Below, in pieces: positions 38,080-43,709 of a stretch of DNA of 64,000 nt (positions are counted from its first letter, which is position 1; each line of letters starts with the position of its first letter). The notes under the pieces are model-generated. The model made no database searches. It was not told where the DNA came from and saw nothing but the letters and a program-made list of their open reading frames with translations. This DNA is from Idiomarina sp. (GTDB lineage: Bacteria > Pseudomonadota > Gammaproteobacteria > Enterobacterales > Alteromonadaceae), in contig JAFIFH010000070.1 in NCBI GenBank assembly GCA_020832105.1, positions 62,001 to 126,000 of the forward strand, in the 5' to 3' direction. The position numbers were made by a program, and so were the translations under genes.

Positions 38080-38119
38080 TTAAGCTGAGCAGGGGATAAA
38101 TCGTTCATCCGTTGTACCT

Positions 38120-39400
38120 TCAGGCGGCCTGGACAAAGCTCAGTTCAAGATCAGAGATAATATACAAATCATTATAACGACTCGCTGCCGCTTCGCTGCG
38201 CTGTAAGCGAAATAGCGCCCGCTGCTCGTGCTGCAACCCCTGATACTCACTGAGAACCTGAAATAGCCACACCTCTGCGTCCCATGGGAATCCTTTTGCT
38301 TCAAGGTAATCGAGGGCGGAACTCGCACGACCTGTGTCGACCACCTCCAGCATAAAGGTTTCGACATCGGTTTTCAGCGCTTGCTGGCGCGCTTCAACCT
38401 CACTGCTGTCTGCCCCTGATGCCACCTGCGCACGTTCGCCGTCTGCGCTGTCCTGCTGCCGCTCGGGCATCGGCAGGCTTCTGGCGATCTCTGCCGCACA
38501 CTGCTGGGCACTGTGGCTGTCCAGGCTTAGCGCAGCAGCCGGTACGATTGGCTTCGCCTGATTAAACAGGTCCGGCACTGTGCTGCGATCGGTATAGCTG
38601 CCCACAACAAAGCCCGGGTGCTCTCGCAAAAAGCCGGCCATATTTGCAATCAGCACACTGCGCGCCTGCTGCTCGCGAAAACGCAGCATCAGTTGGGCCA
38701 GGCGAACCTGCACTTCGAGTAGGCTGGTGTGATGCCCACTCAGCTGACGCTGCAATTGGCTGACCAAGAGTTTGCGTAAGTGTACGTTACCCTCACCAAG
38801 CTCAATTAATTCTGCAAAATCAATCAGGTTGAGGCCATCCAGCAGGCGCTTTATTTGCTTTTGCGCACGGTCATTCTCACGAATTTTATCTGCCAGACTA
38901 CTGACAAAACCAAAGTTGGAATTAAGCCGGTGCCACAAGCTATCAATAGCTTCGCCGAACTGTCCGGCCAGATCATGCACCTGGTTGGTCAGGTGCTGCA
39001 GCTCTGATTCCGCCTTGATAGTATCGCCACAGCGCTGAGCATCGCGGTAGTTTTGCACCCGCATGCGCATCGTTTCCAGCTTATCTGCAACATCAGCGTT
39101 AATATGCCGGCGATGTTCGTCAGCCACCATACTGGCAATCAGGTCACTACATTGCGGGCGCAGGATAAAGCCACGGGTCTCATCAGGCTGGTAAAGTATA
39201 TGGGCATTGACCAGCTTCTTTAACCCGCGTTCAGATACCTGACTCTCATCCAGCTCACCGCAGATATACGTACGCATCAGGACATCGGCATGCTTACCAA
39301 GCAAGCTCAGGCGCTCGGTTCCCGTCACCAACAATGAGTGTGTCAGGTGCTGCGGTTGCAGTGCTTTGCCTGCTTCGTTGACGGGGTGAGTATCGGACAT
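38120..39400 (-). CDS. MksF/MukF-like kleisin subunit of an SMC-like complex
   Basis: 426 residues. N-terminal winged-helix-like segment (SQVSERGLKKLVNAHILYQPDETRG region), a long helical middle (about 100-260) and a winged-helix-like C-terminal part, the shape of MukF, MksF or JetA kleisins. Sequence alone gives a weak call; the operon with an MksE-like protein and an SMC-like ATPase makes it. The ATG overlaps the stop of the MksE-like gene by one base (TAATG). Confidence 0.7.
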   Translation of the reverse strand: MSDTHPVNEAGKALQPQHLTHSLLVTGTERLSLLGKHADVLMRTYICGELDESQVSERGLKKLVNAHILYQPDETRGFILRPQCSDLIASMVADEHRRHINADVADKLETMRMRVQNYRDAQRCGDTIKAESELQHLTNQVHDLAGQFGEAIDSLWHRLNSNFGFVSSLADKIRENDRAQKQIKRLLDGLNLIDFAELIELGEGNVHLRKLLVSQLQRQLSGHHTSLLEVQVRLAQLMLRFREQQARSVLIANMAGFLREHPGFVVGSYTDRSTVPDLFNQAKPIVPAAALSLDSHSAQQCAAEIARSLPMPERQQDSADGERAQVASGADSSEVEARQQALKTDVETFMLEVVDTGRASSALDYLEAKGFPWDAEVWLFQVLSEYQGLQHEQRALFRLQRSEAAASRYNDLYIISDLELSFVQAA

Positions 39401-40020
39401 TAGATCAAGGTCTCCTGTACGGCATCCTCACTGACTGGCAAATTCTCTTCGTCGCGCACAAAGCGTACCACTTCGATCAGGTAATCAACTTTGCCGGTGA
39501 CTTCGAAGTACTGGCGTTCATTATGGGGCTGACGCAAATAGCCGTGCTCACGTAAGCGCTTGAAGATCTGTTTAGCCTGCGCATCCACCGAGTCCGCCTG
39601 GGAATTAAAAAAGCGATCATTTGCGAGCAACTGCAGGCGCTGGCGCAGGCTGGGGTTGTCTTCTGTCTTCAGCACATATTCCTGCAACTTAATCGCATCG
39701 CCTGCGCTAATCGCGCCATCACGACCAAGGGTTTCCTGCACCAGCTGCATCCACTCTAAAAGAGGTAATAGTGATTGCACCGTGTGACCCAGTTGCTGCT
39801 TTAACGACTCGCGCGCTTGTTCATCAAAATGCAGGTAACTGAGAAAGAACACCTGCCCGTCCTGACTCTGCGCCACTCGCCGATTCAGGGGTTTCAGGTA
39901 CTCGTCCGCCGCACTCACCATCTGCTCGTCCTGCAACCGCCGATAATTTTCCGGATCGCTAATTGCACAGACGAATGCACCGCTTAACAGTACTTCAATC
40001 AGGGGGCCATGCACGCTCAT
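39400..40020 (-). CDS. MksE/MukE-like subunit of an SMC-like complex
   Basis: 206 residues, soluble, with two winged-helix-like parts; the second contains KQIFKRLREHGYLRQPHNERQY followed by a beta wing and the FEVTGKVDYLIEVVRFVRDEE helix. Size and place match MksE/JetB, which bridges kleisin and SMC. Overlaps the ATPase gene by ATGA and the kleisin gene by one base, so the three proteins are made in fixed ratio. Confidence 0.7.
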   Translation of the reverse strand: MSVHGPLIEVLLSGAFVCAISDPENYRRLQDEQMVSAADEYLKPLNRRVAQSQDGQVFFLSYLHFDEQARESLKQQLGHTVQSLLPLLEWMQLVQETLGRDGAISAGDAIKLQEYVLKTEDNPSLRQRLQLLANDRFFNSQADSVDAQAKQIFKRLREHGYLRQPHNERQYFEVTGKVDYLIEVVRFVRDEENLPVSEDAVQETLI

Positions 40021-43000
40021 ACGCTTTCCTCAATGGCAGTATCGGTTAACTTCTCGGCGAGTTTTGCGCTCAGTGCGGATACTCGCGGCTGAATACGTTT
40101 TAACTGACCTTTGCCGGGTAAGTCTTTATGTGCCTCAATCAGGTAGCGATGCTTAAACAGCAACAGCACGTCAGATTCCGGGTTCGGAAATGCGCCGACC
40201 ACCTGAATATGGTTGCTGTCACAGGCTGTAAATAGACGCTCGACGTTGTGGTAGGCCAGCGTACCAATCTCATCGATAGGCCAGTGCAGAACCACCTCGC
40301 TGTCGCCACGCAGCAAGCGAGTGAAAGCCAGTAGGAACTTACACAAAATCAGGTAGGCCATGCCGTGGCTGGATGATTCAAGCAGCTGCCGGTCGTTGCG
40401 AATAATCAGCTCTGACCCGCGTTCATTTAAATACAGTTCGAGCTTTAACAGGGATTCAAAGCTGTATTCCTGATCTGCGCGCAATAAATCGGCCACATCG
40501 GCCAGCCGATCCAGATAGGCGTCAGACGGCAGCAGTTCACCGGATTCGCTCCAGCGCTGGTATAGCTGGCTCAGCTCTTTAAGAGGTTGCCAGAAACCAA
40601 GCTCGTCAACCGTGGACGATATTTTCACCTCCGAACGGTTGATACCTTCCAGCGCTAAATCATCACCCACCACTTCGGTCAGGCGACGGCTGTACTGGCC
40701 GACTTTGCGGTTCACGTCATCAAACACTTTAAAGAAGCTTTGCAGGCCACCACCGATATTGCGGCCTTGCTCAACGATTTGCAGCTGCTGATCATTGAGA
40801 ATGTTAAGCAGTTCACCGAGCACTTTAGCTCGCGCAATAATACCGGCACTGTCGGCGAGTGTTGCAAATTCACGGTCGATCATTTGCTCAAAATCAGCAC
40901 TCGCATCACGGCGCAGCAGGGCACTGAAGTTGTCACATTGGTCGCGCAACTGGCGGGCGAAATCCTGATATTGGTTCAGCGTTTCGCATAGTCGCTCAAT
41001 GCGCTCTGCTACATCACCAAAATCCGTCGCCACCGCTTCTACTTTCACATCAGCCGCAAAGTCTTCCTGCTGCATTAAACTCACAAACCGCTGTAATTGC
41101 GTCTCAAGTTCGCTGCAAAGCTTTTGCCGATAGGTTAACTGCCCCTTGAGATCCTTTTCGGCGCTGCGGTAAGTCTCGCGCTGAGCGTGCGTGCGCGCTT
41201 TTAGTTCAGCCAGTTGCTGGGTTAGGTTCTCCAGTGTGGCACGGGCTTGCTGCTCTTCAGTTAGCCACTGGGGCCGCTGTTGGTTCCAGGTACTGCGCAT
41301 AAACTCTTGATACCCTGCGAGTTCATGCTGGCGTTCTTTGACTGTGCTAATCCGCTCGCGAAGTTCAACGATGTCGGACTTCAGAGTCTGCAGTCGTTGG
41401 CTATCAACACCTGCGGCTGCAAGCTCCTGATTAACCTGTTTCTCTAATTCACGGACCTGTTGTTTATTGGTCTCGCGCAGTTCGTCCACCTGCTGTTGAT
41501 ACAGCGCCAGATCCTCATCAATGCTGTCCAGTTGCTCCTGAAAGTCTGCTCGATGCTCAAGCTCCAGCGCTTTATAATCATGGCGCAGCCTTTGTACTGC
41601 CTGATCATAGCCGTCACGCTGCACGCGCTCGTCATTCTTGATATCCTCAATGCGTTGGCGATGCGCTTGCTGACGCTGCTTAATCAGGCTTTCATGTTCA
41701 CTATGCAAACGCCGCTTTGCTTCCCGCGCGTAATCCAGGTCCTGCTGCGTACGTCGCACCTGCTGGGTAACCTGGCGCACCTGGTCTGCGGCATCCTGAG
41801 CCGCCTGATGCGTTTGATTAAGTTGCTTTTCAGCCTGCTCCTGCTCATCAATCAGCCGCTGATGTGTGTGCCGCGCCTGCTCCAGTCGGGTTTGTACCTC
41901 GACTTCGTCAGCCGCATACCCGGGCTGCTCAATCGCGCTGAGATCCAGAGTGACCCCAAATAACGTCGTCGTTTGCTCGCTTAATGAAGGTGCCAGATCG
42001 GTGCGTTCAAGCAGAGATTCGGCGACCACTTTACCCAGGCTCTGCTCCCAGCCTGGCTGGTGCTGCCGCAGAAAATGACGCAAACTGCCCTGCACCGGGT
42101 CCAGCTGTCGCTGCAATTGTTGTAGATCCTGCTGCGCCTGATGAACCAGCTGCCGTGCGCGGGTCAGTTGATGGTCGCTATGTTGGCGCTGCTCTTTGGC
42201 CTGTGCGGCAGTACGCTCAACTTTGCGCAACATATCGCTGTGGGTTGCAAGCTGCAACTGAGCGTCATCAATACGTGCGTCAGCCAGTTGCATGGCCTCG
42301 CGCTCTGCCGCAGACAAGGGCGCAATATCCAACTGCGCCTGCAAAGTAGCGCGCTCGCTATGCAAGGTCTGTAAGCGTTGGTGCAAGGCTTCCTGCTGTT
42401 GCTGTTGCGCCTGCCCGAGCTCCTGCTGCAGGCGAGCGAGAGTGTCTGCCTGCTGTTCGCGTAATTGATTCTGCGTGTGTCGCAGACTGTCTGCAGCTTT
42501 TTGATTTTTGCGTTGTAACCGGTCCAGGTTCTCTGCCAACTGGTTTTTACGTTGCTCGATTTTTTGCGCGATGTCTTCATTTTTTTCCATCATCAGCGCC
42601 AGGTGTTGCTGCTTTTCTTCTGCTTCCTGTTGCCATAAATGCAAGGATTTCAGGTTCTGCTCTACCTCTTCAATGCCGCTGTCCACGTACTGCGCCCGCT
42701 TTTGCTCCGCAGCTTTTAAGTTTCTCTCTAACTGTTGATGAGTGCTTTGAGTTTCACTTTTTGCGTCGACCAGTTCACGATGCTGCCGTTCATAGTCCTG
42801 CTCCAACGCCTCCCTTTGCTGACGCAGCTCACTTAACTCTGCTTCCTTGTCGGCGAGCTGAATTTTTAAAGTCTGCTTGTCTTCGTCAATAAGCGGTTTG
42901 AGTTGCCATAACAGGGTTTGCGAGCCGGCCGTATCGGCCATGCGCTGGCCAATTTTCTCAAACTGCTGCTGCAAATCGTCCATCCGCATAAACTGGCGCA

Positions 43001-43709
43001 TCTCTTTGATCCAGGCCCTGATTTTTGCCGGTTTAAAACTGAGCTCAGGGCGCTGGTAACCGTCCTCTTCCAGTATGGTGGCCAGCATACTTTTCAACGT
43101 GTCCATTTTGCCTTCTTTGGCATGTACCGCGCTAACCAGTTTCTCGATATGGCGCAGGCGCTGGTGACCACCCACGAGCGCGTAGCGGCCCGCAAGCTGA
43201 CGTAACTTAAGGTTGTCTTTGCGGTTGCTGCGCATCGCACTTAAATCGTTTTGAATAATCGCGCGGTACTCACTGGTGGCACTAATTTTGTGGCTACTAC
43301 TGACGCCAAGGTCACGCAGCCGTTGTGCCCACTGCTGATAACTGACCCCCTGCACCCCGTCCAGCGACTCATCCAGGTAGTGCTCGCTATGATAAGCAGC
43401 ATCCACGAAGCGGTAATCAACGCCATCAGCTCGCTTGGTTAACACCACTTGTTTGGGTTGGCCGCCCACCTCGTACTCGTAAATCAGATAGGAGTTTTGA
43501 AAAGGTAGGTAGAAGACATCAAAGCGGTCGCGGGTTTTTGGTACCACTTTGTTCGGTTGCTCACCATAGAACACAGGCACCAGGCGCTGTAACGTGGTTT
43601 TACCCGAAGCATTGGTGCCACAGATATTCGCGTGCCCGGTGAGATCCAGTTCAACCACCCCAGGCAAATGGGTATGGATCAGAATAATACGACTTAATTG
43701 CGCCATCAT
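40017..43709 (-). CDS. MksB/MukB-like SMC ATPase (DUF3584-type)
   Basis: 1230 residues, probably starting at one of two adjacent ATGs (43709 or 43706). Walker A GTNASGKTT (31-39) and the YLP motif (67-69) are the two motifs given for Pfam DUF3584. Residues about 265-970 are coiled coil rich in Gln, Glu, Arg and Leu, interrupted by a hinge-like segment near 540-590. The C-terminal head has a signature-like ESSSHGMAYL (about 1110) and Walker B HWPIDE (E1147). It should form a V-shaped ATPase that compacts or loops DNA with the downstream MksE/MksF-like proteins. Unlike Wadjet, no JetD-type nuclease gene is adjacent. Confidence 0.8.
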   Translation of the reverse strand: MMAQLSRIILIHTHLPGVVELDLTGHANICGTNASGKTTLQRLVPVFYGEQPNKVVPKTRDRFDVFYLPFQNSYLIYEYEVGGQPKQVVLTKRADGVDYRFVDAAYHSEHYLDESLDGVQGVSYQQWAQRLRDLGVSSSHKISATSEYRAIIQNDLSAMRSNRKDNLKLRQLAGRYALVGGHQRLRHIEKLVSAVHAKEGKMDTLKSMLATILEEDGYQRPELSFKPAKIRAWIKEMRQFMRMDDLQQQFEKIGQRMADTAGSQTLLWQLKPLIDEDKQTLKIQLADKEAELSELRQQREALEQDYERQHRELVDAKSETQSTHQQLERNLKAAEQKRAQYVDSGIEEVEQNLKSLHLWQQEAEEKQQHLALMMEKNEDIAQKIEQRKNQLAENLDRLQRKNQKAADSLRHTQNQLREQQADTLARLQQELGQAQQQQQEALHQRLQTLHSERATLQAQLDIAPLSAAEREAMQLADARIDDAQLQLATHSDMLRKVERTAAQAKEQRQHSDHQLTRARQLVHQAQQDLQQLQRQLDPVQGSLRHFLRQHQPGWEQSLGKVVAESLLERTDLAPSLSEQTTTLFGVTLDLSAIEQPGYAADEVEVQTRLEQARHTHQRLIDEQEQAEKQLNQTHQAAQDAADQVRQVTQQVRRTQQDLDYAREAKRRLHSEHESLIKQRQQAHRQRIEDIKNDERVQRDGYDQAVQRLRHDYKALELEHRADFQEQLDSIDEDLALYQQQVDELRETNKQQVRELEKQVNQELAAAGVDSQRLQTLKSDIVELRERISTVKERQHELAGYQEFMRSTWNQQRPQWLTEEQQARATLENLTQQLAELKARTHAQRETYRSAEKDLKGQLTYRQKLCSELETQLQRFVSLMQQEDFAADVKVEAVATDFGDVAERIERLCETLNQYQDFARQLRDQCDNFSALLRRDASADFEQMIDREFATLADSAGIIARAKVLGELLNILNDQQLQIVEQGRNIGGGLQSFFKVFDDVNRKVGQYSRRLTEVVGDDLALEGINRSEVKISSTVDELGFWQPLKELSQLYQRWSESGELLPSDAYLDRLADVADLLRADQEYSFESLLKLELYLNERGSELIIRNDRQLLESSSHGMAYLILCKFLLAFTRLLRGDSEVVLHWPIDEIGTLAYHNVERLFTACDSNHIQVVGAFPNPESDVLLLFKHRYLIEAHKDLPGKGQLKRIQPRVSALSAKLAEKLTDTAIEESV

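What the first reader, a model, noticed from the sequence alone, without database searches (positions are those of the whole stretch)
38120..43709. SMC-like three-gene operon (DUF3584 ATPase with MksE- and MksF-like partners), no nuclease gene
A 1230-residue ATPase with GKT and YLP motifs, long coiled coils and ABC-type C-terminal head is translationally coupled to MksE- and kleisin-like genes. Gene order is B-E-F, not the F-E-B(-G) order of MksBEF/Wadjet, and there is no JetD/MksG gene beside it. It may be a housekeeping condensin, or an anti-plasmid system that lost or never had its nuclease. The ATPase family has had no assigned function under DUF3584.
Basis: partly seen in the sequence, partly recalled or inferred. 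Interest (0 to 1): 0.72.

Follow-up and report, generated by a model that had tools for sequence, protein, structure and literature searches.

The report
Plasmid-cutter relative without its nuclease
A marine bacterium carries a three-protein DNA-looping machine from an unrecognised relative of the Wadjet plasmid-cutting systems; it has very probably lost the nuclease gene that close relatives still carry, which offers a natural test of how a defence system may turn into a chromosome-care machine.

Summary
In detail: three overlapping minus-strand genes encode an SMC-like ATPase (B), a MksE-like KITE subunit (E) and a probable MukF-like kleisin (F). No JetD-like nuclease gene lies beside them or was found elsewhere in this Idiomarina genome, which has Smc and ScpA but no MukB. 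Reading 59 complete loci changes the picture: B-E-F order is universal, and 18 loci carry an intact fourth gene behind F (D, Pfam DUF7281; broken in a 19th), a short JetD-like Toprim protein with invariant metal-binding acids. All 12 plasmid loci and the one phage locus read are complete B-E-F-D. The window's sister on the B tree keeps D at the corresponding chromosomal place. The tree asks for about 16 losses of D if the ancestor had it; BEF without D stays under purifying selection (dN/dS 0.008-0.07 in two D-less pairs). The window thus most likely holds a nuclease-stripped descendant of a Wadjet-like system, kept as a DNA-looping complex; whether it serves the chromosome or acts on plasmids without cutting is unproven. 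PADLOC models give only weak partial hits. A 2023 review proposed nuclease loss for Pseudomonas MksBEF; repeated loss makes that idea testable.

The parts
40017..43709 (-). B: SMC-like ATPase, 1230 aa, DUF3584 / MksB-JetC homologue
   Evidence: hhalign to an alignment of 13 canonical MksB/JetC proteins: 98.9%, E 3.8e-17, over the N-terminal half
43596..43619 (-). Walker A motif GTNASGKT (B residues 31-38)
   Evidence: sequence; alignment A2; pattern in 58 of 59 B proteins
43503..43511 (-). YLP motif (B residues 67-69)
   Evidence: sequence; pattern in 58 of 59
40362..40373 (-). ABC signature SSHG (B residues 1113-1116)
   Evidence: sequence; pattern SS.G in 59 of 59
40263..40286 (-). Walker B with the presumed catalytic glutamate, HWPIDEIG (B residues 1142-1149)
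   Evidence: sequence; pattern in 58 of 59
39400..40020 (-). E: KITE subunit, 206 aa, MksE/MukE/JetB-like
   Evidence: at E up to 1, Pfam MksE matches 32 and DUF4194 25 of 39 homologues (best 1.9e-11 and 2.8e-8), the window's own copy only DUF4194 at E 6e-4, below the cut-off; hhalign to 11 canonical MksE: 92.6%, E 4.5e-7; Foldseek's nine best all MukE/JetB
38120..39400 (-). F: probable kleisin, 426 aa; my reading of the model: N-terminal winged helix, helical middle, disordered linker, C-terminal winged helix, as in MukF
   Evidence: weak AlphaFold model (pLDDT 59); MukF heads the Foldseek and VIA-align lists; no sequence-profile match to canonical MksF
38080..38119 (.). 40-base gap between F and the convergent nucleoside phosphorylase gene: the side on which relatives carry gene D; no room and no trace of it here
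   Evidence: tblastn of D proteins (E up to 0.05) finds no remnant here

Best explanation
The three genes are the motor part of a Wadjet-like SMC system with gene order B-E-F-D, of which the window's copy has lost the Toprim nuclease gene D. Shown: an intact ATPase gene, a MksE-like KITE subunit and a probable kleisin, conserved together; a JetD-like fourth gene in relatives, including same-genus relatives at the corresponding chromosomal place; repeated absence of D on the tree; purifying selection on BEF in D-less pairs of relatives. Inferred: two B proteins, with F and E dimers, form an ATP-driven loop-extruding complex; with D it cuts small circular DNA as JetABCD does; without D it extrudes and compacts DNA but cannot cut. 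The likeliest present use is as an accessory condensin beside Smc-ScpAB, like MksBEF of Pseudomonas aeruginosa.
For: Homology: B, E and D match canonical MksB/JetC, MksE/JetB and JetD alignments; MukE/JetB and MukF head the Foldseek lists. D: Pfam DUF7281 over its cut-off in 10 of 10 tested; three presumed metal-binding acids (E, D, D) invariant in 43 of 43; behind F in 18 of 59 loci, broken in one more. D occurs in 19 of 145 related genomes (one broken), all of which also have B, always behind F of the same operon, and in none of the 85 genomes without B. D and B trees share the same three main groups. Losses: 16 all-D-less clades in a tree of 82 rows, midpoint-rooted, with D-bearing basal plasmid copies; the window's starred sister G005 has D. 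G005 (L042) has PepSY, DUF2271 and DUF4198 genes on one side and the HD/dgt-like gene on the other, as the window has; G008 (L043) also shares the TonB, deoD-like and acylphosphatase genes. Decay in progress: G077 has two D fragments, and G032 a 24-residue trace. BEF in D-less pairs: dN/dS for B/E/F 0.045/0.008/0.070 (L040-L041) and 0.068/0.008/0.056 (L050-L051). Smc and ScpA are in the genome, MukB is not. Precedent: P. [quoted passage not shown]
Against: F shows no sequence-profile match to canonical MksF (probability 0.3), its model is poor and most MukF superpositions have rmsd of 17-19 A. Pfam MksE does not match in the window's own genome. The operon is present in only 8 of 17 genomes of the genus, which does not suit an important chromosome function. 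The tree counts changes, not direction; presence of D is only slightly more clustered than shuffled labels (15-18 of 500 shuffles as low), so some re-gain cannot be excluded, and the D tree has only 3 starred branches of 15. Of 40 D-less loci only one shows a trace of D. dS was saturated between the window and L042, so selection on the window's own copy rests on its intact frames and on D-less relatives. No activity has been measured here for any member.
Confidence: 0.66

Rival explanations
1. Nuclease-free anti-plasmid system: BEF still recognises small circles and silences, compacts or missegregates them without cutting, as Smc5/6 is thought to do with extrachromosomal viral DNA.
For: Patchy, accessory distribution and complete four-gene copies on plasmids and a phage point to conflict between replicons; BEF is kept under purifying selection in D-less pairs. 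Silencing of circular extrachromosomal DNA by Smc5/6 is described in PMC10586767 (passages).
Against: I met no cutting-independent restriction by a JetABC complex in the passages that I read; in C. [quoted passage not shown]
Confidence: 0.2
2. Nuclease in trans: BEF works with an unrecognised nuclease encoded elsewhere, or with a topoisomerase, so the system is still a cutting defence.
For: The assembly is 92.8% complete in 77 contigs; cooperation of MukB with topoisomerase IV is mentioned in PMC10123090 (passages).
Against: No JetD_C, no DUF7281 and no D in the genome; in the 19 of 145 related genomes that have D it lies in the same operon as B.
Confidence: 0.08
3. A decaying remnant with no present function.
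For: D is gone, and 9 of 17 genomes of the genus lack the whole operon.
Against: All three frames are intact with the ATPase motifs, and two D-less pairs of relatives show dN/dS of 0.008-0.07.
Confidence: 0.05

Closest known systems
Wadjet / JetABCD / MksBEFG (type I)
   Same: MukB-like SMC, KITE, probable kleisin and, in relatives, a Toprim protein with E-N ... DxD (hhalign D against 7 canonical JetD: 95.4%, E 2e-8, over 75 columns)
   Different: Order B-E-F-D instead of F-E-B-G; D is 266-313 aa in 41 of 43 (two longer by choice of start), canonical JetD in my loci 389-412 aa in 9 of 11 (two longer by choice of start); PADLOC models give only weak partial hits; the window lacks D
MksBEF of Pseudomonas aeruginosa (nuclease-free condensin beside Smc-ScpAB)
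   Same: Nuclease-free MukBEF-like complex beside Smc and ScpA
MukBEF of E. coli
   Same: Small subunits find MukE and MukF first in Foldseek
   Different: No MukB Pfam match in the genome; gene order differs from mukFEB (recalled)
Smc-ScpAB
   Same: General SMC plan
   Different: Separate smc and scpA genes are present on other contigs

Membership tests
Wadjet (JetABCD) | MukB-like SMC ATPase (JetC) | tested here: met
   DUF3584 E 4e-225; hhalign to canonical MksB/JetC 98.9%
Wadjet (JetABCD) | KITE subunit (JetB) | tested here: met
   hhalign 92.6%, E 4.5e-7; Foldseek's nine best MukE/JetB, TM about 0.3; VIA-align list mixed, JetB rank 5 with Z 7.0
Wadjet (JetABCD) | kleisin subunit (JetA) | tested here: inconclusive
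   MukF heads fold lists but model pLDDT 59; no profile match
Wadjet (JetABCD) | Toprim nuclease JetD in the operon | tested here: not met
   absent from window and not found in the genome; present in relatives as DUF7281
Wadjet (JetABCD) | recognition by curated Wadjet models (PADLOC) | tested here: inconclusive
   weak partial hits for B and for D of relatives, one weak JetA hit for E, none for F; PADLOC's own cut-offs are not shown by the tool
Wadjet (JetABCD) | restriction of small circular plasmids | not testable with these tools
   needs transformation or cleavage assays
MksBEF (nuclease-free condensins) | MksB, MksE, MksF in one operon without nuclease | tested here: inconclusive
   B and E met; F only by weak fold evidence; no nuclease found
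MksBEF (nuclease-free condensins) | F-E-B gene order | tested here: not met
   B-E-F in 59 of 59 loci
MksBEF (nuclease-free condensins) | role in chromosome organisation | not testable with these tools
   needs deletion and Hi-C
MukBEF | MukB Pfam family (PF04310) | tested here: not met
   no match in the genome
B-E-F-D family (this work) | B-E-F order, long B (about 1200-1310 aa), DUF7281 gene as fourth gene | tested here: inconclusive
   order and B met; fourth gene absent in the window but intact in 18 of 59 genome-assembly loci and in 13 of 13 plasmid or phage loci read

The most novel reading that the evidence does not exclude
A Wadjet-like plasmid-cutting system has been disarmed about a dozen or more separate times in one bacterial order, each time losing only its nuclease and keeping its DNA-looping motor, which now restrains extrachromosomal circles by compaction or silencing, as a bacterial counterpart of Smc5/6, instead of by cutting.
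Probability: 0.2. Interest if true: 0.85.

Novelty: new variant of a known kind. Interest (0 to 1): 0.64.

Why it matters
Whether condensins such as MukBEF and MksBEF descend from plasmid-defence machines is open; a review proposes it from structural kinship and names P. aeruginosa MksBEF as a likely case (PMC10586767, section 7 and passages). Here armed and disarmed copies sit in one genus at corresponding chromosomal places, and elsewhere among close relatives (B branch lengths of 0.01-0.04), so the step from cutter to non-cutter can be tested with natural pairs. It also adds a little-recognised, plasmid- and phage-borne Wadjet-like family with a short JetD-like protein (DUF7281; the term occurs in no paper of the library searched).

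Tried and rejected
Housekeeping condensin: not favoured, because only 8 of 17 genomes of the genus carry the operon and Smc and ScpA are present.

'Never had a nuclease': not favoured, because D is found in close relatives and in all seven rows of the basal plasmid clade.

Selenocysteine or pseudogene reading of B in two genomes flagged '1 TGA': rejected, the TGA is the natural stop at the end of B.

Contact motif IFDR of JetB: a loose form was absent from all 39 E proteins, but also from my 11 canonical MksE, so uninformative.

A replacement effector behind F in D-less loci: in the window and several others the next gene is convergent; I did not classify every downstream gene.

PDB sequence searches: with B mostly coiled-coil proteins and nothing that I count as a specific relative, with E and F only two weak hits each, with D a single hit, MksG 8b7f, at E 0.028. 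D of L043 against plasmids by tblastn: none at 1e-5, although profile search then found D in all 12 plasmid loci read. The D profile also missed the D-like genes of short-MksB loci that the Pfam model found, so absence of distant D forms by my profile is weak evidence. Papers: 'DUF7281' 0; 'DUF3584' 5, none with a title or opening of abstract about SMC complexes; a search on loss of JetD listed only PMC10586767; 'Dfl-JY45' with 'Dolichospermum' 0. The early paper on MksB families (PMC3179180) is not held, so I cannot say whether it already shows B-E-F order.

Rows dropped: G102 (B cut by a contig end) before the 59-locus count; 33 of the 45 plasmid records, mostly partial or weak matches, were not read. 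The contrast between mobile and genome-assembly loci (13 of 13 against 18 of 59, Fisher p 3e-6) ignores relatedness, the choice of high-scoring rows, and that the replicon type of the 59 was not checked. dN/dS: 13 pairs were tried; B was saturated (no value) in 5, and pairs such as L077-L144 and L046-L047 may include time with D. Of 9 BEF-less genomes of the genus asked for the dgt-like gene, 3 had a clear orthologue and only those were read.
Full report
1. Observation. Searches confirm three overlapping minus-strand genes: B 40017-43709 (1230 aa), E 39400-40020 (206 aa), F 38120-39400 (426 aa). B is a full-length DUF3584 protein (E 4e-225) with Walker A, signature and Walker B motifs. E matches DUF4194 weakly (E 6e-4, below the cut-off); F matches nothing in Pfam. 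The genes beside them look ordinary: an HD-domain protein (dgt-like, my naming), acylphosphatase, nucleoside phosphorylase (deoD-like, my naming), TonB receptor, PepSY membrane protein, DUF2271, DUF4198, an alpha/beta hydrolase and a chemotaxis receptor. The window lies on contig C26 of a 3.03 Mb, 77-contig, 92.8% complete genome.

2. What else is in the genome. One DUF3584 gene, a canonical Smc (978 bits) and ScpA on other contigs; no MukB, no JetD_C, no DUF7281 and no match to the profile of the relatives' fourth gene. Pfam MksE does not match in this genome either; E of the window is recognised only through its relatives.

3. The family. B occurs in 60 of 145 related genomes, the window's own included: 8 of 17 in the genus, 33 in the same family (about 70 genomes by handle numbers), the rest in the order. 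One of the 60, G102, is cut by a contig end and was dropped. In all 59 remaining loci B, E and F stand in that order on one strand. Behind F, 18 loci carry an intact gene D (in 16 of them 103 bases or less away or overlapping F; in G120 one small gene lies between and the gap is 482 bases; in G141 the called genes overlap by 74), and one (G077) carries two fragments. D is Pfam DUF7281 over the cut-off in 10 of 10 tested; JetD_C also passes its cut-off in two of them, and weaker JetD_C, DUF2399 or Topo VI Toprim hits occur in others; 9 of 10 have weak PADLOC JetD hits. Its profile aligns with canonical JetD over 75 columns of the Toprim part (95.4%, E 2e-8), and its only PDB sequence hit is MksG, at E 0.028. 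In 43 D proteins the acids equivalent to E152, D204 and D206 of the L042 copy are invariant. D is found in 19 of 145 related genomes (18 intact); all 19 have B and none of the 85 genomes without B has D. In a sample of 398 genomes of the phylum, full-length B (over 500 bits) was found in 22, all in the same class, and strong D in 10, all of them among the 22; two further weak D hits (E 4e-4) lie in genomes without B. Of seven further loci read, six are B-E-F-D and one B-E-F.

4. Mobile copies. tblastn of B finds 45 plasmid records at E up to 1e-5 (7 covering at least 80%) and one phage. I read 12 of the plasmid loci and the phage locus: 13 of 13 are complete B-E-F-D operons. B is annotated 'ATP-binding protein' on the plasmids and the rest 'hypothetical', except two D genes called 'DUF2399 domain-containing protein'; the phage genes are all 'hypothetical' and pPL1 has no annotation. 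D in 10 of 10 tested is DUF7281 over the cut-off. They include records typed as conjugative, pMAQU02 (Marinobacter), pAZI09 (Azospira) and Polaromonas plasmid 1, and Dolichospermum phage Dfl-JY45 (208,985 bp). All 12 plasmid records are at least 107 kb; Wadjet is reported to spare circles above about 100 kb (PMC10586767, passages), but several of these are far larger, so this is only consistent.

5. Subunit identity. Canonical MksFEB(G) loci were collected from a class sample (22 of 229 genomes match Pfam MksE; 20 loci read), and alignments of 10 MksF, 7 JetD, 13 MksB and 11 MksE were made. Profile comparison links B to MksB/JetC (98.9%, E 3.8e-17, N-terminal half) and E to MksE/JetB (92.6%, E 4.5e-7). 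At E up to 1, Pfam MksE matches 32 and DUF4194 25 of 39 E proteins (best 1.9e-11 and 2.8e-8). F has no profile link to MksF. E (pLDDT 72): Foldseek's nine best are all MukE or JetB (E 5e-4 to 0.024, TM about 0.3), but VIA-align gives a mixed winged-helix list with JetB fifth at Z 7.0. F (pLDDT 59): Foldseek's four best are MukF (E 0.004 to 0.09, TM 0.17-0.30), and MukF holds VIA ranks 1 to 6 and 8 (best Z 12.7), mostly with rmsd of 17-19 A, one (7nyw_C) with 5.1 A over 161 residues; unrelated helical proteins follow within about one Z unit. F as a kleisin is likely, not proven.

6. Loss of D. On a tree of 59 B proteins (broken G077 counted as present) presence of D needs 13 changes, at least 11 forced by starred branches; shuffled labels average 16.2 and 15-18 of 500 were as low, so presence is only weakly clustered. 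The window's sister (97*) is G005, which has D; by path length it is tied with the D-less G011. With the mobile and other copies added (82 rows; broken D counted as lost) the tree needs 14 changes; midpoint-rooted, the basal clade of seven plasmid rows is all D-bearing and 16 maximal D-less clades remain, that is 16 losses if the ancestor had D; three of them lie in the genus (window; G010 with G011; G003 with G009). D and B trees agree on the three main groups, though the D tree has only 3 starred branches of 15; this favours descent with loss over repeated gain. Within the genus BEF lies next to, or within one gene of, the deoD-like or dgt-like gene in 7 of 8 carriers; of 9 BEF-less genomes, 3 have a clear dgt orthologue, and all 3 show dgt-like and deoD-like genes without BEF. 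G005 carries D with PepSY, DUF2271 and DUF4198 genes upstream of the operon and the dgt-like gene behind D, but without the TonB and deoD-like genes; G008 carries D with all of these neighbours. No trace of D remains in the window, and only one of 40 D-less loci (G032) shows a trace.

7. Selection without the nuclease. Nei-Gojobori dN/dS for B/E/F in pairs that share one D-less clade: L040-L041 0.045/0.008/0.070 and L050-L051 0.068/0.008/0.056. Pairs whose history may include D: L077-L144 0.045/0.031/0.031 (dS of B and F above 1), L046-L047 0.027/0.027/0.033. The one pair with D on both sides, L052-L055, gave 0.031 for B and 0.022 for E at dS above 2. The window is too far from its nearest relative for dS. 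So BEF without D is not decaying in the D-less pairs that could be measured.

8. How it most likely works. Inferred from the SMC family (recalled): B dimerises through its hinge, F closes the ring and E dimers bind F; ATP binding and hydrolysis drive loop extrusion. With D, completion of extrusion on a small circle would trigger cutting, as proposed for JetABCD (PMC10586767, passages). Without D, BEF can load and extrude but not cut. P. [quoted passage not shown] I therefore favour an accessory condensin, with nuclease-free action on plasmids as the main rival.

9. A wider hint. DUF7281-like genes also lie directly behind short MksB genes (917-936 aa) in four genomes, G153, G293, G294 and G780; the match of G153 is below the family's cut-off and that of G294 barely above it. 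In these loci E precedes B; F was recognised upstream only in G153. The similar locus of G305 (L107, 943 aa, F-E-B) has no such gene behind B by gene layout. This fits the idea that other nuclease-free MksBEF complexes also had a DUF7281 partner. L107 is unnamed, so I cannot say that it is P. aeruginosa.

10. Novelty. PADLOC models give only weak partial hits: for the window's proteins, for D, and one partial LmuB hit for 8 proteins of three B-E-F-D loci. A library search found no paper with the term DUF7281. mksFEBG order is described as conserved, including in Pseudomonas (PMC10123090, passages). The early MksB paper is not held, so priority for the B-E-F order is open. I rate it a new variant of a known kind.

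Noticed in passing
L231 (PP438435.1, record 86907-93262): Dolichospermum phage Dfl-JY45 encodes a complete B-E-F-D operon, annotated hypothetical throughout; the only one of 50,697 phage records with a B match at E up to 1e-5.
   Followed up: partly
L108, L109, L110, L227: Short-MksB loci (917-936 aa; E before B) have a DUF7281-like Toprim gene behind B, suggesting that other nuclease-free MksBEF complexes may also be disarmed descendants.
   Followed up: partly
L223:9460-10022: Two D-like fragments without a recognised B in the 19 kb around them in G752, which has a full B-E-F-D elsewhere (L222): an orphan remnant.
   Followed up: no
L122:5688-12063: A possible further SMC-like operon: a 1013-aa gene (very weak AAA hit), a 464-aa gene, a MksE gene, then Syd and PP2C-like genes.
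   Followed up: partly
L042:12431-14800: In Idiomarina relative G005 the dgt-like gene lies 17 bases behind D on the same strand, so it may be cotranscribed with the system.
   Followed up: no
L202:12528-15941: In G014, whose BEF-D lies elsewhere, a 1138-aa gene of unknown kind sits beside the deoD-like gene in the slot that BEF uses in other genomes of the genus.
   Followed up: no
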